Positions 16,299 through 26,250 of a stretch of 36,466 nt of DNA are shown here, in pieces. Position 1 is the stretch's first letter, and every line of letters starts with the position of its first letter. The position numbers were made by a program, and so were the translations under genes. The DNA is from Candidatus Hydrogenedentota bacterium (lineage in GTDB: Bacteria; Hydrogenedentota; Hydrogenedentia; Hydrogenedentales; CAITNO01): assembly GCA_012523015.1 (NCBI GenBank), contig JAAYJI010000145.1, positions 1 through 36,466 of the forward strand, read 5' to 3'. Below the pieces are notes generated by a model that ran no database searches, was not told the origin of the DNA, and saw only the letters and a program-made list of their open reading frames with translations.

Positions 16299-17405
16299 AT
16301 GAAAACAGCGTGGTACATAGTGCCGGTGTTGCTGGCTTGCGTTGTCGGGGCTGTCGCCCAAGAACAACAAGTCAACGTTGCCGTCAAGATTATTGAATTC
16401 CAGACCTCCGCTGGTAAAGAATTCGGATTAAGCTCTTATTTTCGGCATCGTGTTGAGCCGCGTCCCTACGGTATTGTATCCACCGGCAAAGGGATTATTA
16501 CGGCGGCTTCCACCGCCTTTCCGAATCTCTCGACCGGCGGGGTCACCGTTTTTCTCGATCGCTTGAGCGGCTATTATGGTGATTTTGAAGTGGTGCTGCA
16601 GGCACTGGTCGATCAAAACCGCGCCTTCATTCTTTCCCAGCCCAAAGTAATGGTGCCTGTGGGGGTAGAGACTCCAACGGTCATTAAAACCACGCAGGAT
16701 GTGTCCTATGAAAACACGGTCGTCGTAGGGGCGACCACGACACAGACCACTGCATTCCGCGCAACCGGTGTTACCTTGACTGTGAACGCGCTGCAGGTCG
16801 TGGATGATGATGGCGATCCGGCAACGCAAGATGATGTGTTTATCCAATTGCAGTTGATTGCGGAAATTAACGAGGAAGGCGAACGTATTACGGTCGCCTT
16901 GGATGATCGAACACCGACGGGAACGCTCTTTACCCAATCTTCCAATGCAATTACCGTGCCTGAGTTTATTTCTCGCAGTATTGATACGACCGTGTGGGTG
17001 CGTCAGGATCAGGTGTTGTTGTTGGGCGGCTTGTATCGCAACACCAAAAATAAGAATGTGTCGACGCTGCCTTGGCTGACACAAAGTGAAAACATCGTCA
17101 ATAACGTCGTGGAACAACTATCCCCTTTTACGGAAACCCCCAAAGTGCCGCTCTCCTCAGCCTTGGGAAATCGTAACCAACGAGAATCACGCCGCGAATT
17201 GGTGTTTATGGTGAAAGCCGATCTGTGGCGTAAAGCCTATACAATCACCCAAGCCCATGATCTCTACCATGAGGATGATGAAGAAGTGGAAGAAGACGAA
17301 GACATCATCCGGCCCAAACGGAGCGGGCGTTTTGTGGATACTATTCTTGATTCACTAGGGGGTCGTGGTGACAGTGTGGAAAATATTTTGGGAGGACGTG
17401 ACTAA
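16299..17405 (+). CDS. Secretin-family protein lacking N-domains (first of pair)
   Basis: A 368-residue protein with a signal peptide (AWYIVPVLLACVVGAVAQ). It passes straight into a secretin-like core: QVNVAVKIIEFQTSAGKEFGL (the start of a secretin beta-domain), FEVVLQALVDQNRAFILSQPKVMVPVG, FRATGVTLTVNALQV, ITVPEFISRSIDTTVWVRQDQVLLLGGLYRN, and RRELVFMVKADLW at the end of the barrel. Secretins form multimeric outer-membrane pores for type II/III secretion and type IV pili, and are usually 500-700 residues with several N-domains; these are absent here. The usual V-P-x-LG-x-x-P-x-x-G gate motif is degenerate (VSTLPWLTQSENIV). An acidic tail (DDEEVEEDED) and a short basic segment follow the core. 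Its TAA overlaps the next start. Confidence 0.78.
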   Translation: MKTAWYIVPVLLACVVGAVAQEQQVNVAVKIIEFQTSAGKEFGLSSYFRHRVEPRPYGIVSTGKGIITAASTAFPNLSTGGVTVFLDRLSGYYGDFEVVLQALVDQNRAFILSQPKVMVPVGVETPTVIKTTQDVSYENTVVVGATTTQTTAFRATGVTLTVNALQVVDDDGDPATQDDVFIQLQLIAEINEEGERITVALDDRTPTGTLFTQSSNAITVPEFISRSIDTTVWVRQDQVLLLGGLYRNTKNKNVSTLPWLTQSENIVNNVVEQLSPFTETPKVPLSSALGNRNQRESRRELVFMVKADLWRKAYTITQAHDLYHEDDEEVEEDEDIIRPKRSGRFVDTILDSLGGRGDSVENILGGRD

Positions 17406-18502
17406 TGAACCTATATGAACGTCTCGCCCGGCTTATGTTGATTTTCACCGTGCTATTCTTAGCTTTTCTGCCCTTGCGCTCTTTGGCTGAAGAAGCTGCA
17501 GCACCGGCTGAAGAAGCGCCGCCGCCCGCTGAAGAAGCACCGCCCGCCCCAACCGGACCCGCCGATGTGCGCCAAGTACAGGTAAAAGTTTGGATCAGCG
17601 AAACCAATGAACAAGGGCTGCGCAACCTTGGCGCCAATATGACTTTTAACCGCTTTGTAAGAGGCGAAGAACAATCGGGCAGCGTGCAGAGTATCAATCT
17701 CAGCACCATGAACGCTTCGGAACGTTTCGCCACGGTGACCATGCCCTATCCCAATACGGAACTTTTCGATACGCCCATGCGCCCCGATTTGGATGGAAAT
17801 CCGGCAACAGGTCTGCAAACAAAACACGGCGTTGGCTTAGAGTTCAGTGTCATTGATGGGGATAGAGGAACCATTGACGGACTCTTCCATGCTATGGAGC
17901 AGAGTGTTGAGTTAGATTTGATTTCCAAACCGGAACTCATTGTGGCGAACGGTCTTTCCGCTACCATCAAGGCTGGCGGACAGGTTCCCTATCAAGATGT
18001 GACTTACGCGGGCGTGACTCCGACGCTCAAAGTGGCGTGGCGTGATATTGGCGTTAATTTAAGTCTGATCCCCACGGTCATGCCCAATAATTACGTCAAA
18101 CTTGATATTGCAGAATTGGAAGTCTCTGATACGGCCCGTATCGATAATATACGAGGCATCGATTTGCCTGTCTTTTCCTCGCGCTCACAGACGGGCACGG
18201 TCTTTGTACCTGACGGCACAACCTTAGTTGTCGGTGGTTTATCCAGCCGTGTCGTCCGTCAATCGGAACGGCGTATCCCGATTTTGGGGAAAGTGCCTTT
18301 GCTGGGCATTCCCTTCCGAAGCCGCAAGTCAGATGCAGAAGTAACGAGCTTACTTATCTTTGTGTCGCCTACGGTGGTTGATATGCGTGCGCCTACACCG
18401 CAAGCCAAAAGCGCCCTGTCCTTCTGGCGCGAACGCGGCTCCGAGTGGGCGAATAAAGATCGTATCGACCGTGAAGTAGACGCCATGGGAGCGGGATACT
18501 AA
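17405..18502 (+). CDS. Secretin-family protein lacking N-domains (second of pair)
   Basis: A 365-residue protein with a signal peptide (LARLMLIFTVLFLAFLPLRSLAE) and a linker of Ala/Pro/Glu repeats (EEAPPPAEEAPPAP), followed by a secretin core. Recognisable blocks are VQVKVWISETNEQGLRNLG, FHAMEQSVELDLISKPELIVANG, ATIKAGGQVPYQ, LKVAWRDIGVNLSLIPTV, GTVFVPDGTTLVVGGL, the gate motif RIPILGKVPLLGIPFRS, and SLLIFVSPTVVD, which normally ends the secretin domain. N-terminal N0/N1 domains are missing. GGAGG lies about 9 bases before the ATG, whose A is the last base of the preceding TAA. The two secretins are distinct in sequence. No assembly ATPase, prepilin or platform gene is in the window. Confidence 0.85.
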   Translation: MNLYERLARLMLIFTVLFLAFLPLRSLAEEAAAPAEEAPPPAEEAPPAPTGPADVRQVQVKVWISETNEQGLRNLGANMTFNRFVRGEEQSGSVQSINLSTMNASERFATVTMPYPNTELFDTPMRPDLDGNPATGLQTKHGVGLEFSVIDGDRGTIDGLFHAMEQSVELDLISKPELIVANGLSATIKAGGQVPYQDVTYAGVTPTLKVAWRDIGVNLSLIPTVMPNNYVKLDIAELEVSDTARIDNIRGIDLPVFSSRSQTGTVFVPDGTTLVVGGLSSRVVRQSERRIPILGKVPLLGIPFRSRKSDAEVTSLLIFVSPTVVDMRAPTPQAKSALSFWRERGSEWANKDRIDREVDAMGAGY

Positions 18503-19005: not shown

Positions 19006-19911
19006 ATGACAGGATTATTGATTGCCGGAGGGGTAATGCTCGCCCTCGGCGTATTACTTTCCGGGCTGCTGGCCATTGCCAACCGGAAACTCTATGTCTT
19101 TGAAGATCCCCGTATTGATGGGGTTGAAGAACTGCTTCCCGGTGCAAATTGCGGCGCCTGCGGTTTTGCCGGATGCCGCGCCTTTGCAGAGGCCTTGGTC
19201 ACCGGTACGGCACAGCCCGCCTTATGCACGGTGAACACAGCAGACGGCATTGAAAGCATCGCCTCCTATCTTGGTGTTGAGGCAGGCGAAGGGGTCAAAC
19301 GGGTAGCACGCCTTGCCTGTGCCGGCGGTGACGGCATCGCCAAACGTTTTGCCCACTATGAAGGCCGAGAAAGCTGCCGCGCTGCTGCGCTTATAGCGGG
19401 CGGCGGTAAAGCCTGCACTTACGGATGTCTGGGCTATGGCGATTGTATACGCGTTTGTCCATTCGATGCGATCCACATGAACGAAAATAATTTGCCCGTT
19501 GTCGATGAAAAGAAATGCACCGCCTGCGGTAATTGTGTTGTTGAATGTCCCAAGCATCTGTATTCCATCCATCCCGTCGAACATCAACTTTTTGTGGCAT
19601 GCTCCACGCAGATGCGCGGTAAAGATGCGAAGGAAGCGTGCCGGGTCGCCTGCATCGGCTGCGGTCTTTGCGCGCGGACGCTGCCTGAAGTCATTACCAT
19701 GAACCAAAATTTGCCTCGCATCGACTACGATAAAAACGAAGCGGCTACACGAGATGCCATTCAACGCTGCCCCAGCGGCGCCATCTGCTGGCTCGAATTA
19801 GGCGGCGGCGTCACCTACGGCGCGAAAGCATTGGAGGCGCGCGGCATGGCGTGCACGGTGGAGGCAGAGAAAACACAGTCTAAACAACAGGCGGAGGCAG
19901 CCTTATCATGA
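19006..19911 (+). CDS. rnfB: Rnf complex subunit RnfB (iron-sulfur)
   Basis: A 301-residue protein anchored by one N-terminal helix (LLIAGGVMLALGVLLSGLLAIA) with iron-sulfur domains in the cytoplasm. RnfB accepts electrons from ferredoxin and passes them on in the Rnf complex, which couples ferredoxin oxidation and NAD+ reduction to ion export. An NCGACGFAGC motif with Cys49, 52, 57 and 74 binds the first cluster. The ferredoxin-like pair has Cys137/141/147/151 and Cys171/174/177/181, both complete. A further ferredoxin-like segment (CRVACIGCGLCARTLPE ... RCPSGAIC) lacks several expected cysteines. It is first of six overlapping or closely spaced genes; AGGAG lies about 10 bases before the ATG. 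Its stop overlaps rnfC by 4 bases. Confidence 0.95.
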   Translation: MTGLLIAGGVMLALGVLLSGLLAIANRKLYVFEDPRIDGVEELLPGANCGACGFAGCRAFAEALVTGTAQPALCTVNTADGIESIASYLGVEAGEGVKRVARLACAGGDGIAKRFAHYEGRESCRAAALIAGGGKACTYGCLGYGDCIRVCPFDAIHMNENNLPVVDEKKCTACGNCVVECPKHLYSIHPVEHQLFVACSTQMRGKDAKEACRVACIGCGLCARTLPEVITMNQNLPRIDYDKNEAATRDAIQRCPSGAICWLELGGGVTYGAKALEARGMACTVEAEKTQSKQQAEAALS

Positions 19912-21239
19912 GTACTTGTATGCCTACTTTCCGACATGGTGTTCATCCTCCCGAATGTAAAGAGACCGCAAGCGCTGAGGTCATACGTATCCCGTGGCCC
20001 GACAAAGTGATTGTGTTGTTGTCTCAGCATACGGGCGCGCCAGCCAAGGCGATTGTAAAAAAAAGACAAGACGTGGCGCGCGGCGAAATGATCGCCGAAG
20101 CGGGCGGCTTTGTTTCGGTGCCGATGCACGCGCCTATTGCCGGTCAAGTGAAGTCGGTAGACCTTGCCTTGAACCCACGGGGCGAATTATCCCCTGCCAT
20201 CGAAATCATACGTGACCCGGATCAAGATCCGGAAAGCGTGCGCGGCAGCTTCCAAGATATAGACAGTCTGGAAGGGGATGCTTTGGTAGAGGCGGTTCAA
20301 AATACGGGAGCGGTCGGACTGGGCGGAGCTGCATTCCCCACCCATGTGAAAATGAAAGTGCCTGCAGGCCGAAAGATTGAGGCGGTCGTTGTGAACGGCT
20401 GTGAATGTGAACCCTATCTCACCACAGACTATAGGGTCATGATGGAGCAGGCGAACCAAATTATCGCAGGCATCCAGATTGCCATGAAAGCGACTAAAGC
20501 GCCCAAAGCCATCATCGCCATTGAAAATAATAAGCCTGCTGCCGTTGATGCCATGATGGCGGCTGTGCCCGAGGGTGCGCCGATCACGGTATGCAGCTTG
20601 GCGACGAAGTATCCTCAGGGCGCAGAGAAAATGCTGAGTACGGCGCTGCTGGGCCGTGAAGTGCCCTCAGGCGGCCTGCCTAGTGATGTGGGCATGGCTT
20701 GTTTTAACGTGGCTACCCTCGCGCAATTGGGTGAACTGCTGCCCTCAGGACGCGGTCTGATTGAGCGCGTGATTACCGTGGCAGGGGGTGGTGTCGAACG
20801 GCCCGGCAACTATATGGTTCCGCTGGGCACACCGTTGCGGCACATTATGGAATTTGTCGGCATTCGTCCCGATGCGCGCAAGATTATTAACGGCGGTCCC
20901 ATGATGGGTACCAGCGTCGCCTCCTTGGACGTGCCCTTGACCAAAGGCACGTCAGGCTTGCTTGTGTTGCGTGATGACGAAATTCGTACGGGTCGGTTGA
21001 ATGTCTATCCCTGCATCCGCTGCGCCCGCTGTGTGGATGCCTGTCCCGTGTTTTTAAATCCCTCTGACATGGGGTTGCTTGCGCGCAACTCCCGACATGA
21101 GGAGAAGGCGGAATCGTACCATCTGTACGACTGTATTGAATGCGGCTGCTGTTCTTATGTCTGTCCGTCAAACATTCCGTTGGTACAGTATTTCCGTATT
21201 GGCAAGGCGATGCTCAGAGAAAGGAGCGCAGCGAAATGA
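19908..21239 (+). CDS. rnfC: Rnf complex subunit RnfC (NADH-side flavo-iron-sulfur subunit)
   Basis: A 443-residue cytoplasmic subunit that binds FMN and carries NAD(H) chemistry in the Rnf complex. It has the expected N-terminal region (FRHGVHPPECK), a sandwich-hybrid/biotinyl-lipoyl-like part (GGFVSVPMHAPIAGQVKSV), the Rossmann-type nucleotide region (GAVGLGGAAFPTHVKM, VVNGCECEPYLTTDYR), an SLBB-like stretch (GNYMVPLGTPLRHIMEF), and two C-terminal 4Fe-4S motifs, CIRCARCVDACP and CIECGCCSYVCP. The length is at the usual size. GGAGG lies about 10 bases before the ATG. The start overlaps rnfB and the stop overlaps rnfD (ATGA in both), so translation is probably coupled. Confidence 0.95.
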   Translation: MSTCMPTFRHGVHPPECKETASAEVIRIPWPDKVIVLLSQHTGAPAKAIVKKRQDVARGEMIAEAGGFVSVPMHAPIAGQVKSVDLALNPRGELSPAIEIIRDPDQDPESVRGSFQDIDSLEGDALVEAVQNTGAVGLGGAAFPTHVKMKVPAGRKIEAVVVNGCECEPYLTTDYRVMMEQANQIIAGIQIAMKATKAPKAIIAIENNKPAAVDAMMAAVPEGAPITVCSLATKYPQGAEKMLSTALLGREVPSGGLPSDVGMACFNVATLAQLGELLPSGRGLIERVITVAGGGVERPGNYMVPLGTPLRHIMEFVGIRPDARKIINGGPMMGTSVASLDVPLTKGTSGLLVLRDDEIRTGRLNVYPCIRCARCVDACPVFLNPSDMGLLARNSRHEEKAESYHLYDCIECGCCSYVCPSNIPLVQYFRIGKAMLRERSAAK

Positions 21240-22324
21240 GTCCCGCATCTCATACGCATGTATTAGAAATAGGAACGTCCCCGCACATCAAAGGCCCCGA
21301 AAGTGTTCCGAACATCATGTTCAACGTCGTATTGGCGTTGATGCCGGTCACGTTTTTTGCGGTGTGGGCTTTTGGAATGAGCGCCTTTCTGCTGCTGGTG
21401 ACAACGACCTTATCTGCTGTTGCCGCTGAGCATGTTAGTTGTAAGCTTGCGAAGAAACCGACCACGATCCATGATTGGAGTGCCACCATCACGGGATTGA
21501 TTCTTGGTCTGACCCTGCCTCCCGGTACGCCCTTATGGATGGGTGCCTTGGGCGGTATTTTCGGCGTGATTATCACCAAAGCGCTTTTCGGCGGCTTAGG
21601 ATACAATTGTTTTAACCCTGCACTGGTGGGGCGCGCCTTCCTCCAAATTTCTTTTCCCGTTGCAATCACGACGTGGACGCCGTCGGGCTTACCCGGCCGC
21701 TTTTTACATCTCATCCCTTCCACGTTGTCTGCTCCCTTTATGGAGCCCAATGCTGATGCCGTGAAGAGCTACGTGGCGAACGCTTTATCCTCCGCGGGCA
21801 TTGACGGTTGGTCCGGCGCGACACCCTTGTCCATGTGGAAGTTTGCCGATGTACCCGAATTTGAATCTACGTGGAATCTCTTCTCGGGCATGGTCTCGGG
21901 ATCTACCGGCGAAACTGCCTCATGGCTGATTTTGCTGGGCGGCGCTTACCTCATCTGGCGCAACATGATGAATTGGCGCATTCCTGCCGGCATGTTAGGA
22001 GCCGTCTTCTTCGTGAGCGGCGCGTTGTGGCTTACAGATCGCAGCGCCTATCCTGATCCCGTTTTCATGCTCTTCTCCGGCGGGCTGCTCTTTGGCGCGG
22101 TTTTTATGGCGTCAGACATGGTCGCTTCGCCCATGACCTCCCTGGGCGTGTGGATCTATGGCGCTTTTATTGGTGTTGCCACGACGGTGATCCGCCTAAA
22201 GGGAGCGCTGCCTGAGGGTGTGATGTTTGCAATTTTGCTGGGTAATGCGCTGTCACCTTTGATTACCGATATTACGCAGCCTGCCACCTATGGTATTAAA
22301 AAGAAAGGCCTTTTCAGGATATGA
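21236..22324 (+). CDS. rnfD: Rnf complex subunit RnfD (membrane flavoprotein)
   Basis: A 362-residue polytopic membrane subunit. Conserved blocks are SPHIKGPESVPNIMFNVVLALMP at the start, ITGLILGLTLPPGTPLW, GGLGYNCFNPALVGRAFL, and GWSGATPL at about 191-198, where the threonine is the expected covalent FMN attachment site. Then come STGETASW and the final helices ending in QPATYGIKKKG. The frame is open from 21140, but the ATG at 21236 has AAGGAG 9 bases upstream and starts at the family's N-terminus; it overlaps the rnfC stop as ATGA. FMN attachment needs an ApbE flavin transferase, which is not in the window. Confidence 0.95.
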   Translation: MSPASHTHVLEIGTSPHIKGPESVPNIMFNVVLALMPVTFFAVWAFGMSAFLLLVTTTLSAVAAEHVSCKLAKKPTTIHDWSATITGLILGLTLPPGTPLWMGALGGIFGVIITKALFGGLGYNCFNPALVGRAFLQISFPVAITTWTPSGLPGRFLHLIPSTLSAPFMEPNADAVKSYVANALSSAGIDGWSGATPLSMWKFADVPEFESTWNLFSGMVSGSTGETASWLILLGGAYLIWRNMMNWRIPAGMLGAVFFVSGALWLTDRSAYPDPVFMLFSGGLLFGAVFMASDMVASPMTSLGVWIYGAFIGVATTVIRLKGALPEGVMFAILLGNALSPLITDITQPATYGIKKKGLFRI

Positions 22325-23007
22325 CGACACAGCTTCAAGCAGTCGATGCGCCGGTCACTCCGCCTGATTCCGACAGCAGCTTCCCGATGTTTCGTACACT
22401 GGGCGGGTTGGCACTCTTATCCGGATGTCTGCTTTCATTGGTATTTCAGCTCACGAAAGACCGCATCGAACATAATTTTGAGGAGCGCGTCCGCGAAGCG
22501 GTATTTGAACTGCTGCCCGGCGCAACGGAACAAAAAATTCTTGAATTCATCGGAACCGATGAACGGATCGGGGAAGTTCCCTTTACCGCCTATGCGGGCT
22601 ATGACGAAACGGGAAGACTTATCGGCGTGGCGTTGGAAGCCGTCGATGGCAACGGTTACAGCGGTGAGATTCGTTTTCTTTATGGATATTTGCCCGACAA
22701 AGAACGGGTTGTGGGCATGAAAGTGTTGTTGTGTAAAGAAACCCCCGGTCTGGGCGATAAGATCAAGACAGACGAGAATTTCATCGCGAATTTCAGACAG
22801 CTGGATGTGACCTTGAATGAGGATGCCTCCGCCCTTGAAGTACCCCTTTCCTTTGCTAAACCAGGGCAGGGCGGCGGCCGTGGTCAGATAGAAGGTATTT
22901 CCGGAGCGACCATCTCTTCGAAATCAGTTTTTCAGGCTATCGATTCCAGCACGCGACTGAAACTTCCCGTTATTCAACACCATCTGAGCGAATTGCAGGA
23001 GAATTAA
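22321..23007 (+). CDS. rnfG: Rnf complex subunit RnfG (periplasmic FMN subunit)
   Basis: A 228-residue subunit with one N-terminal helix (TLGGLALLSGCLLSLVFQLT) and a periplasmic FMN-binding domain. The covalent flavin motif is SGATISS (194-200, Thr197), preceded by KETPGLGDKI (139-148), as in NqrC/RnfG proteins. About 20 extra residues precede the helix. The gene overlaps rnfD by 4 bases (ATGA) and ends 2 bases before rnfE. Confidence 0.95.
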   Translation: MTTQLQAVDAPVTPPDSDSSFPMFRTLGGLALLSGCLLSLVFQLTKDRIEHNFEERVREAVFELLPGATEQKILEFIGTDERIGEVPFTAYAGYDETGRLIGVALEAVDGNGYSGEIRFLYGYLPDKERVVGMKVLLCKETPGLGDKIKTDENFIANFRQLDVTLNEDASALEVPLSFAKPGQGGGRGQIEGISGATISSKSVFQAIDSSTRLKLPVIQHHLSELQEN

Positions 23008-23009
23008 CT

Positions 23010-23666
23010 GTGAATGAACAATCCAAACCGGCTGCATCCATGGATGTTTTTCTTCGTGGTGTATGGCAGGAAAATCCCGTCTTCGTCATGTTGCTGGGCA
23101 CCTGTCCCACACTGGCGGTGACCAATAAAGTCATTAACTGTTTTGCCATGGGCGTATCAGTACTTTTTGTGTTGGTCATGTCGGGACTGCTCATTTCCTT
23201 GCTGCGCAATTTCATCCCGAAACAAGTTCGTATTGCCAGTTTCATCATCATCATCGCCACCTTCGTGACCATGGTCGATTATGCGATCCAATCCATCAGC
23301 CTGAACCTTTATGACAGTCTGGGCGCTTTCATTCAATTGATCGTGGTTAACTGCATTATTTTGGGCCGTGCTGAAGCTTTCGCATCGAAGAACGGGCCTG
23401 TACGCTCCATGTTGGATGCCATCGGCATGGGGCTCGGATTTACTTTTGCCCTGCTCTGTTTGGGGGTCATCCGTGAAGTGCTCGGAAACGGCACCCTGTT
23501 GATGGATACGCCTTTTGAAATCTCGCTCTTTGGCGAACATTTTGCGCCTTGGTCCATTATGATCCTGCCTCCGGGCGGATTCTTTGTGCTGGGTCTTGAA
23601 TTAATTCTCTTTGCTTGGCTGCGTAAATGGCGTGAAGCGCGGCAAGTAAAGACAGCCGCTATCTAG
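23010..23666 (+). CDS. rnfE: Rnf complex subunit RnfE (membrane)
   Basis: A 218-residue membrane subunit of six helices. Family blocks are FLRGVWQENPVFVMLLGTCPTLAVTNKVINC, VNCIILGRAEAFASKNG, MLDAIGMGLGFTFALLCLGVIREVLG and LPPGGFFVLGLELILFAW. The cysteines in GTCP and VNC, on the two half-helices, are the expected ligands of the membrane-embedded iron centre shared with RnfA. It starts with GTG at 23010, with AGGAG 8 bases upstream. The stop is 12 bases before the rnfA ATG. Confidence 0.95.
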   Translation: MNEQSKPAASMDVFLRGVWQENPVFVMLLGTCPTLAVTNKVINCFAMGVSVLFVLVMSGLLISLLRNFIPKQVRIASFIIIIATFVTMVDYAIQSISLNLYDSLGAFIQLIVVNCIILGRAEAFASKNGPVRSMLDAIGMGLGFTFALLCLGVIREVLGNGTLLMDTPFEISLFGEHFAPWSIMILPPGGFFVLGLELILFAWLRKWREARQVKTAAI

Positions 23667-23678
23667 GAAAGCTGTGCT

Positions 23679-24260
23679 ATGAATACAGAATCTCTTCCTT
23701 GAATTTTTATTGCTACCGTAATCGTAAACAACTTTGTGTTGATTATGTTTCCAGGCATATGCGCCTTTCTCGGCGTATCCTCGAAAAAAGAAACAGCAAC
23801 ACGTATGGGCATTGCGGTCACCTTCGTGCTCATCGTCAGTTCCATTTGTGCCTATGGCATCAATATTGTCTTGAATTATGTGGGCGCACCCTACCTGACC
23901 CTCATTTGTTATATTGCGGTTATCGCCGCTGCCGTGCAGCTGGTCGAAATGGTGATCAAGAAATATAGCCCCGGACTCTTTCGTGCCCTCGGCATCTTCT
24001 TGCCCCTCATCACGACAAACTGCGCCATTCTCGGCCTTGCGTTGTTCCAGACCCAAAAGGGCTATAACTTTGTGCAATGTCTCGTTTATGCCGTCGGTGC
24101 CGGCGCAGGATTTACGTTGGCGTTGGTGATCATGGCAGGGATGCGCGAAAAATTGGAACTTGCCGATGTACCCGACATCGCACAAGGTGCTGCCATCACC
24201 TTGATCCTTGCGGGGATCTTGTCCCTTGCCTTTATGGGCTTTGCCGGCTTAGGCGGATGA
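23679..24260 (+). CDS. rnfA: Rnf complex subunit RnfA, frame interrupted by an in-frame TGA at codon 8
   Basis: The RnfA reading frame begins at an ATG at 23679 with AGGAAA 8 bases upstream, 12 bases after rnfE. It reads MNTESLP, then TGA (23700-23702), then IFIATVIVNNFVL and the rest of RnfA. The whole frame encodes 193 residues if the TGA is read, the usual RnfA length, and everything after the TGA aligns with the family: FPGICAFLGVSSKKETA, LGIFLPLITTNCAILG, GFTLALVIMAGMREKL. The cysteines in GIC and TNC are the expected iron ligands. The best start after the TGA is a GTG at 23736, which would remove most of the first helix including the conserved NNF. Neighbouring genes use TGA as a true stop. 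Either the sequence has an error, the gene is mutated, or the TGA is bypassed. Confidence 0.88.
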
Positions 24261-24264
24261 TGTC

Positions 24265-24486
24265 ATGGTCACTTACTTTTCTCATGTTGCCCTTGCTGTC
24301 GCGATCCTGTTTCCAGTCTTAGGACTTTGGGTATTGATCCAGCGCTGGGCACGCAAGGCAGACCACCTTCCCCCGGACCGTGATATGCTTGACCGCCCGG
24401 AAAAGAAGTGCAGCCATTGCGGGATGCACGGGACTTGCGGCGCTATATCTGCAGCAAAGCCGGACGATACCAAAACACTGCATTAA
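24265..24486 (+). CDS. Small membrane protein with CxxC..C motif at the end of the rnf operon (NqrM-like layout)
   Basis: 73 residues: one N-terminal membrane helix (VTYFSHVALAVAILFPVLGLWVLIQRW), a short charged stretch and a cysteine cluster KKCSHCGMHGTCG (Cys49, 52, 58). The start is 4 bases after the rnfA stop, so it is surely cotranscribed with rnf. NqrM, a small one-helix cysteine-rich protein in Na+-NQR operons, is needed to mature the iron centre held by NqrD/NqrE, the homologues of RnfE/RnfA. Sharing layout and position, this protein could do the same for Rnf. That is inference: the sequence itself is not clearly NqrM. Confidence 0.7.
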   Translation: MVTYFSHVALAVAILFPVLGLWVLIQRWARKADHLPPDRDMLDRPEKKCSHCGMHGTCGAISAAKPDDTKTLH

Positions 24487-24729: not shown

Positions 24730-26250
24730 ATGAAAAGGCGAGGAAGAACTGCGATCGTTGGCCTAATCGTTACACTGATTGTAGTGGCCTTTGCAGCAGG
24801 TTCGGCTGATGCGATTATTGAAATATCAACTGCTTATGAATTACAAAAGATCGGCAGTGTCGCCGGATGGTCGTTGGAGGACAGTTATGTGCTCATCAAT
24901 GATATTGATGCAAGCAGCACGGTGGATTGGAACGACGGGAAAGGCTTTTCACCTATCGGGAACAAAAGCGAGCCTTTTTTGGGCAGTATAGACGGGCAAA
25001 GATTTGTTATTCGAGGATTGGTTATTGATAAGCCCTTGCAAGATGGGGTGGGGCTTATTGGCGCTATGAGTATGGGCGCTTCCCTCAACAATATTTGGCT
25101 GGAGGACTGCGAAGTCATGAGTCAGGGCCATTATAATCATGTGGGACTCCTTGTCGGCTACAAGAACGGCGGCACCATCGAGAATTGTCATGGGACGGGA
25201 AAGATTACGGGATCCAATTTTGTGGGTGGGATCGTGGGCAGCAATGAAGCGGGTTTGATTAGCGGCTGCTCTGCCCGGTGCGAGGTGGTCAGCAATCAGT
25301 ATTATGTGGGCGGACTTGTCGGATACAACGAAGATACGATCAGCAGCAGCTGCGCCGTTGGCATGGTTACGGGGCAACAAAGTGTTGGCGGTCTTGTCGG
25401 CGAAAGTGGCGGCGGCACGATTAGCGGCTGTTATGCAGCGTGCGACGCCATGAGTAATAGCTATTATGTTGGCGGTCTCATCGGGAATCTGAAAGATACG
25501 ACGGTCAACAACTGCTATGCCATGGGTTCGGTCGTCGGCGGCAACCTATACAACGTTGGCGGCCTCATTGGAAATATGCAAAGCAGCTCCGTTGTCAATT
25601 GCTATAGTAAAGTAAAAGTTACGGGAGCCGGCTTCGCTGTGGGTGGTTTTGCCGGATACAATTACAATACCGAAACGGCGGCTTGCTATTGGGATTTGGA
25701 TCGTTCCGGACAGACGACGAGCGCAGGAGGAGAAGGGCGTACAACAGTGCAGATGCGCTACCCTTACGACGGCAACACCTATGAAGCATGGGACTTTGTG
25801 TATACCTGGGCTCATGATGTAGAGTCAGAATTCAACGGCGGATATCCATATCTGCAAGCGGTACAGCCCGAGCCGGACTATGTAGGTGACAGCGAGACAC
25901 CGAAGGAGGGTGAGGAGAGTGGGGAAGGAGAAAATTCAGCCGAAGGCGAAACAACTGTTGAAGGCGAAACGATTGTCGAAGGCGAAGCGACTGTCGAAGG
26001 TGAAGACGAAACAACCGTTGAAGGCGAAGGCGAAGCGACTGTCGAAGGTGAAGACGAAACAACCGTTGAAGGCGAAGGCGAAGCGACTGTCGAAGGCGAA
26101 GAGGATGATTTGGATCCGGGCAGCGGCTGCTGCAAGGCGAATGATAAGTTGCTGTCCTTGCCGGAATTGATAGAAAAGACACTGGGCGATTGGCTTGTCA
26201 TTGGTATGAGCCTCGTGGGTCTGGGCGTTATTTCGCGGCGCCGCGTCTGA
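24730..26250 (+). CDS. GLUG-repeat surface protein with acidic EGE stalk and C-terminal membrane anchor
   Basis: A 506-residue protein. It has a signal peptide (TAIVGLIVTLIVVAFAAGSADA), then beta-helical repeats of the GLUG type (YYVGGLVGYN, QSVGGLVGES, YYVGGLIGNL, YNVGGLIGNM, each after a GCYA-like turn), found in adhesins and surface proteins. From about residue 390 comes an acidic stalk of EGE triplets encoded partly by a 48-base tandem repeat. The end is GSGCCKAN, a spacer, a helix (DWLVIGMSLVGLGVIS) and RRRV. That last arrangement looks like a sorting or anchoring signal, as in proteins carrying a helix-plus-arginines tail. AAGGAAGG lies 7 bases before the ATG. The ligand is unknown. Confidence 0.85.
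   Translation: MKRRGRTAIVGLIVTLIVVAFAAGSADAIIEISTAYELQKIGSVAGWSLEDSYVLINDIDASSTVDWNDGKGFSPIGNKSEPFLGSIDGQRFVIRGLVIDKPLQDGVGLIGAMSMGASLNNIWLEDCEVMSQGHYNHVGLLVGYKNGGTIENCHGTGKITGSNFVGGIVGSNEAGLISGCSARCEVVSNQYYVGGLVGYNEDTISSSCAVGMVTGQQSVGGLVGESGGGTISGCYAACDAMSNSYYVGGLIGNLKDTTVNNCYAMGSVVGGNLYNVGGLIGNMQSSSVVNCYSKVKVTGAGFAVGGFAGYNYNTETAACYWDLDRSGQTTSAGGEGRTTVQMRYPYDGNTYEAWDFVYTWAHDVESEFNGGYPYLQAVQPEPDYVGDSETPKEGEESGEGENSAEGETTVEGETIVEGEATVEGEDETTVEGEGEATVEGEDETTVEGEGEATVEGEEDDLDPGSGCCKANDKLLSLPELIEKTLGDWLVIGMSLVGLGVISRRRV
25987..26097 (+). repeat. 48-base tandem repeat within the EGE stalk
   Basis: Two identical 48-base units start at 25987 and 26035, followed by a partial third from 26083. Each encodes a 16-residue Ala-Thr-Val-Glu-Gly-Glu / Thr-Thr-Val-Glu-Gly-Glu-Gly-Glu block. 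Identity at silent positions points to recent duplication and possible length variation between strains. Confidence 0.9.

What the first reader, a model, noticed from the sequence alone, without database searches (positions are those of the whole stretch)
23679..24260. In-frame TGA at codon 8 of rnfA inside an otherwise intact rnf operon
The frame from the well-placed ATG (23679, ribosome-binding site 8 bases upstream) to the stop at 24260 encodes exactly the normal RnfA length of 193 residues, but codon 8 is TGA (23700-23702). It falls at the start of the first membrane helix, just before the conserved VNNF. A TGG tryptophan there would differ by one base. TGA is a real stop in rnfC, rnfD and the ABC genes, so the whole genome does not recode it. 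Options are a sequencing or assembly error, an inactivating mutation, read-through, or re-initiation at the GTG at 23736, which would lose most of the first helix.
Basis: partly seen in the sequence, partly recalled or inferred. Interest (0 to 1): 0.75.

Follow-up and report, generated by a model that had tools for sequence, protein, structure and literature searches.

The report
Probable false stop in rnfA
The stop codon near the start of this energy-metabolism gene (rnfA) is really in the assembled sequence, but it is most likely an error in a draft genome pieced together from environmental DNA, because the same draft also carries false-looking stops in other conserved genes, including one the cell cannot live without.

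Summary
The in-frame TGA at 23700-23702 (codon 8 of rnfA) is present as described. The contig belongs to a draft metagenome-assembled genome of Candidatus Hydrogenedentota (357 contigs). Relatives read Phe, Ser, Tyr, Ala or Glu at this codon (Ser in the genus), never Trp, and no other rnfA in the phylum carries a stop. Selenocysteine and TGA recoding are disfavoured: SelA is absent, no UCA-anticodon tRNA was found, and TGA ends neighbouring genes. Six further genes in about 898 kb of the same draft are broken by TAA, TAG or TGA. They include the only pheT, which is essential, and a thiamine-enzyme gene stopped at a Tyr invariant in 11 relatives. All six residues of the window's RnfA that occur in none of 29 relatives lie in codons 8-29; codons 30-193 are clean. 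A short corrupted patch in the consensus explains this best. A very recent real null mutation is the main rival: half of the family's genomes show no rnfA, and this genome also carries nqr genes that could back it up. Read-through and re-initiation are unlikely. Raw reads would decide. Low interest as biology.

The parts
23679..24260 (+). rnfA frame (193 codons) with in-frame TGA at codon 8
23700..23702 (+). in-frame TGA where relatives have Ser, Ala, Phe, Tyr or Glu
23700..23765 (+). anomalous patch, codons 8-29: every residue found in no other phylum RnfA lies here (codons 8, 12, 14, 22, 25, 29), next to the metal-ligand Cys28
23665..23671 (+). likely ribosome-binding site AGGAAAG of rnfA
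23736..23738 (+). GTG at codon 20, possible restart; not the start used by relatives
19006..19911 (+). rnfB, intact
19908..21239 (+). rnfC, intact
21140..22324 (+). rnfD, intact
22321..23007 (+). rnfG, intact
23010..23666 (+). rnfE, intact

Best explanation
The TGA is most likely a consensus error of a draft metagenome-assembled genome, not a feature of the organism. One wrong base, in a short patch (about 23700-23765) that seems to hold several wrong bases, turned a sense codon (Ser in the genus) into TGA. The organism probably makes ordinary full-length RnfA. Shown: the stop is unique in the phylum; the anomaly is confined to 22 codons; other conserved genes of the draft have similar stops. 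Inferred: the cause is base-calling, low coverage or merging of related strains in the assembly.
For: Only 1 of 33 rnfA matches in 68 phylum genomes has a stop. The single-copy, essential pheT of the same draft has an in-frame TAA inside its CLM domain. A 2-oxoacid:ferredoxin oxidoreductase TPP subunit has TAA at a Tyr invariant in 11 relatives. A glycosyltransferase (TAG), an FtsX permease (TAA), a serine recombinase (TGA) and a repeat protein (TAG) are broken too: 6 in about 898 kb, against none obvious in 444 kb of the genus-mate G003. All 6 residues not seen in other RnfA lie in codons 8-29, a concentration no relative shows (at most 4). Codons 30-193 are under strong constraint, dN 0.03 with saturated dS. 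The contig of genus-mate G001 ends inside this same stretch, a hint that it is hard to assemble.
Against: No reads could be examined. 50 ABC-domain matches of this draft show no stop inside, so errors are not dense. The two other interrupted genes checked (TPP subunit, pheT) do not show the same local cluster of odd residues near the stop. Codons 12 and 14 vary in the phylum, so not all six odd residues need be errors.
Confidence: 0.72

Rival explanations
1. A real, very recent nonsense mutation has inactivated rnfA, and with it the Rnf pump, in this strain. The Na+-NQR of the same genome takes over membrane energisation.
For: Rnf is patchily present: the full-length search finds no rnfA in 8 of the 16 other genomes of the family (not counting G001, whose copy is cut by a contig end), and four of those eight keep the nqr paralogues. 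The genome has intact nqrD and nqrE on contig C30, with apparent nqrC and nqrF ends beside them. Leu25 and Pro29 beside the metal-ligand Cys are changed.
Against: Codons 30-193 and rnfBCDGE show no decay, so the event would have to be recent, too recent for several further radical changes to gather in 22 codons. The same draft also breaks essential pheT.
Confidence: 0.21
2. Translation ends at codon 8 and restarts at GTG 23736, TTG 23739 or ATG 23745, giving a shortened RnfA that still holds Cys28.
For: In-frame start codons lie 33-42 bases downstream; such distances allow restart in other operons (general knowledge).
Against: No ribosome-binding site before them; all relatives start at the upstream ATG or its equivalent; it would lose the first half of helix I (residues 3-15 in C. 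tetanomorphum RnfA, PMC9588780); it does not explain the odd residues at 22, 25 and 29.
Confidence: 0.04
3. TGA is read as an amino acid here (selenocysteine, suppressor tRNA or leaky read-through).
For: The frame is open after the TGA and conserved.
Against: No SelA; tRNA-Sec hits coincide with ordinary tRNAs; no UCA anticodon among 39 tRNAs, tRNA-Trp is CCA (the set lacks some expected tRNAs, so it is incomplete); TGA ends rnfB, rnfC and rnfD; relatives have no Cys, Sec or Trp here; TAA and TAG also interrupt genes in this draft.
Confidence: 0.02

Closest known systems
RnfA of the Rnf ferredoxin:NAD+ oxidoreductase (TIGR01943; PDB 7zc6, 9eri, 8ahx)
   Same: Same length, operon context rnfBCDGEA, both metal-ligand cysteines, TIGR01943 above cut-off.
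   Different: In-frame TGA at codon 8; Leu25 and Pro29, invariant in 29 phylum relatives, are Pro and Ala.
False stops from consensus errors in draft or metagenome-assembled genomes
   Same: Scattered stops of all three kinds in otherwise intact conserved genes, including an essential single-copy gene.
   Different: In rnfA several odd residues cluster around the stop; not seen around the pheT and TPP-subunit stops.
Bacterial pseudogenes by nonsense mutation
   Same: Stop early in a gene that is absent from part of the family.
   Different: No decay in the rest of the gene or operon.

Membership tests
RnfA (TIGR01943 / PF02508) | Match to the family model above its cut-off | tested here: met
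   TIGR01943 234.1 bits against cut-off 229.3, from codon 9 on
RnfA (TIGR01943 / PF02508) | Invariant metal-ligand cysteines of helices I and IV | tested here: met
   Cys28 and the Cys of TTNCAILG kept; aligned to 7zc6 and 9eri (ligand role from PMC9588780)
RnfA (TIGR01943 / PF02508) | Uninterrupted frame from start to stop | tested here: not met
   TGA at codon 8
Draft-assembly consensus error | Stop absent from every related sequence | tested here: met
   None of the 32 other phylum rnfA matches has a stop
Draft-assembly consensus error | Similar stops in genes the cell cannot lose | tested here: met
   Single-copy pheT with TAA
Draft-assembly consensus error | Reads disagree with the consensus or are too few | not testable with these tools
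   No reads held
Selenoprotein | SelA and tRNA-Sec present | tested here: not met
   No SelA; no separate tRNA-Sec
TGA-recoding genetic code | TGA in frame across many genes and a UCA-anticodon tRNA | tested here: not met
   No stop in 50 ABC-domain matches; no UCA anticodon among 39 tRNAs
Pseudogene by nonsense mutation | Relaxed constraint along the gene | tested here: not met
   dN 0.03 over codons 30-193; no unique residue there; a very recent event would not show it

The most novel reading that the evidence does not exclude
The patch is real: this lineage has rebuilt helix I around the RnfA metal site and controls RnfA production through a stop at codon 8 followed by restart or regulated read-through.
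Probability: 0.02. Interest if true: 0.6.

Novelty: not a real feature. Interest (0 to 1): 0.08.

Why it matters
As biology, little: it is probably an artefact. As a caution it is useful: this draft carries false-looking stops in essential genes, so gene losses and recodings should not be inferred from it without reads. If the mutation were real it would show a lineage in the act of losing Rnf while keeping Nqr.

Tried and rejected
Trp at codon 8 (no relative has it). Selenocysteine. Suppressor tRNA. Start at GTG 23736. A copy of the patch from elsewhere in the genome, such as a paralogue or gene conversion: no match beyond chance. Frameshift around the stop: neighbouring codons stay in register. 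A first codon-usage scan for broken genes was swamped by antisense shadow frames and was replaced by a six-frame version. Of the candidates, several (for example L163:16934, L208:9013, L230:1130, L235:1089) look like natural gene ends and were dropped by eye.

Full report
Observation. The frame 23679-24260 reads MNTESLP*IFIATVIVNNF... with TGA at 23700-23702, exactly as reported. From codon 9 on it scores above the curated cut-off of the RnfA model. rnfB, C, D, G and E are whole and colinear with genus-mates. rnfB, rnfC, rnfD and rnfA end in TGA.

Origin. The window is contig C145 of a 3.7-Mb draft in 357 contigs. Its near relatives in the named collection are Candidatus Hydrogenedentota metagenome-assembled genomes.

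What relatives show. Same-genus and most same-family genomes start RnfA at the same ATG with MNTESLP[S/A]IFIN...VNNFVLSMFLGICPFLGVS. Codon 8 is Ser in the genus. Over the 27 phylum sequences aligned there it is F16 S5 Y3 A2 E1, never Trp. Of 33 rnfA matches in 68 phylum genomes only the window's has a stop.

The patch. Taking each sequence in turn and asking which residues no other member has, the window's RnfA has six: codons 8, 12, 14, 22, 25 and 29. All lie in one 22-codon stretch and none in codons 30-193; no relative has more than four in such a stretch. Leu25 and Pro29 are invariant in all 29 relatives and are Pro and Ala here. These sit beside Cys28, which aligns with the metal-ligand Cys25 of C. 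tetanomorphum RnfA, where helix I is residues 3-15 plus 25-31 (PMC9588780; alignment). From codon 30 on, dN against G003 is 0.03 with saturated synonymous change; over codons 1-29 dN is 0.10.

Is the draft reliable? A six-frame codon-usage scan of about 898 kb of this genome and 444 kb of G003 looked for in-frame stops with coding signal on both sides. After setting aside natural gene ends by eye, six broken genes remain in G000: pheT (TAA), a 2-oxoacid:ferredoxin oxidoreductase TPP subunit (TAA), a glycosyltransferase (TAG), an FtsX-type permease (TAA), a serine recombinase (TGA) and a repeat protein (TAG). None is obvious in G003. For the five of these scanned against Pfam a domain match runs through the stop, weakly (just below cut-off) for the permease; the repeat protein was not scanned. 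pheT is the only copy found and is whole in the genus-mates; the TPP subunit's stop stands at a Tyr invariant in 11 relatives. PheT is essential in bacteria (general knowledge), so at least that stop is very unlikely to be real. At about six per 898 kb, a false stop in a 36-kb window is unremarkable. On the other side, 50 ABC-domain matches had none, so errors are sparse.

Recoding. SelA is absent. tRNA-Sec model hits fall on ordinary tRNAs. None of 39 tRNAs has a UCA anticodon and tRNA-Trp is CCA, though the set lacks some expected tRNAs. Stops of all three kinds interrupt genes, which no single recoding explains.

Real loss? No rnfA is found in 8 of the 16 other family genomes (a ninth, G001, is cut by a contig end), and four of those eight keep the nqr paralogues. 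This genome has intact nqrD and nqrE. Loss would therefore be tolerable. But an old null allele would decay throughout, and a young one would not have gathered several radical changes in 22 codons only. A locally corrupted consensus fits both facts. Genus-mate G001's contig ends at codon 30 of rnfA, perhaps because this conserved stretch is hard to assemble when related species co-occur; that is a guess.

Verdict. Probable consensus error (0.72); recent real inactivation (0.21); restart (0.04); read-through or recoding (0.02). Reads over 23700-23765 would settle it.

Noticed in passing
24265-24486 (+): Small membrane protein (73 aa, one N-terminal hydrophobic stretch, then CSHCGMHGTC) right after rnfA, conserved in genus- and family-mates, with no significant Pfam or NCBIfam match. 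By position and make-up it recalls NqrM, the small maturation protein for the NqrD/E [2Fe-2S] centre (PMC12174285), so it may be an Rnf counterpart; untested.
   Followed up: partly
G000:C236 about 10270 (L171), G000:C338 about 5738 (L232), C260 about 17668 (L228), C150 about 11900 (L227), C106 about 6883 (L176), C81 about 14462 (L177): Six further genes of the same draft carry single in-frame stops (TAA, TAG, TGA), pheT among them.
   Followed up: yes
21069-21107 (+), rnfC codons 388-400: Four residues at positions invariant in six relatives are changed within 13 codons (L388M, K394N, Y397H, M400K), a second possible patch.
   Followed up: partly
L121 (G001:C104), end of contig: The contig of a genus-mate stops at codon 30 of rnfA, in the same conserved stretch.
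   Followed up: no
24730-26250 (+): 506-aa protein with repeated VGGLVG-type motifs and a C-terminal run of VEGEGEATVEGE-type repeats before a final hydrophobic segment and RRR.
   Followed up: no
16299-18502 (+): Two adjacent secretin-like proteins (368 and 365 aa), judged from the sequence only.
   Followed up: no
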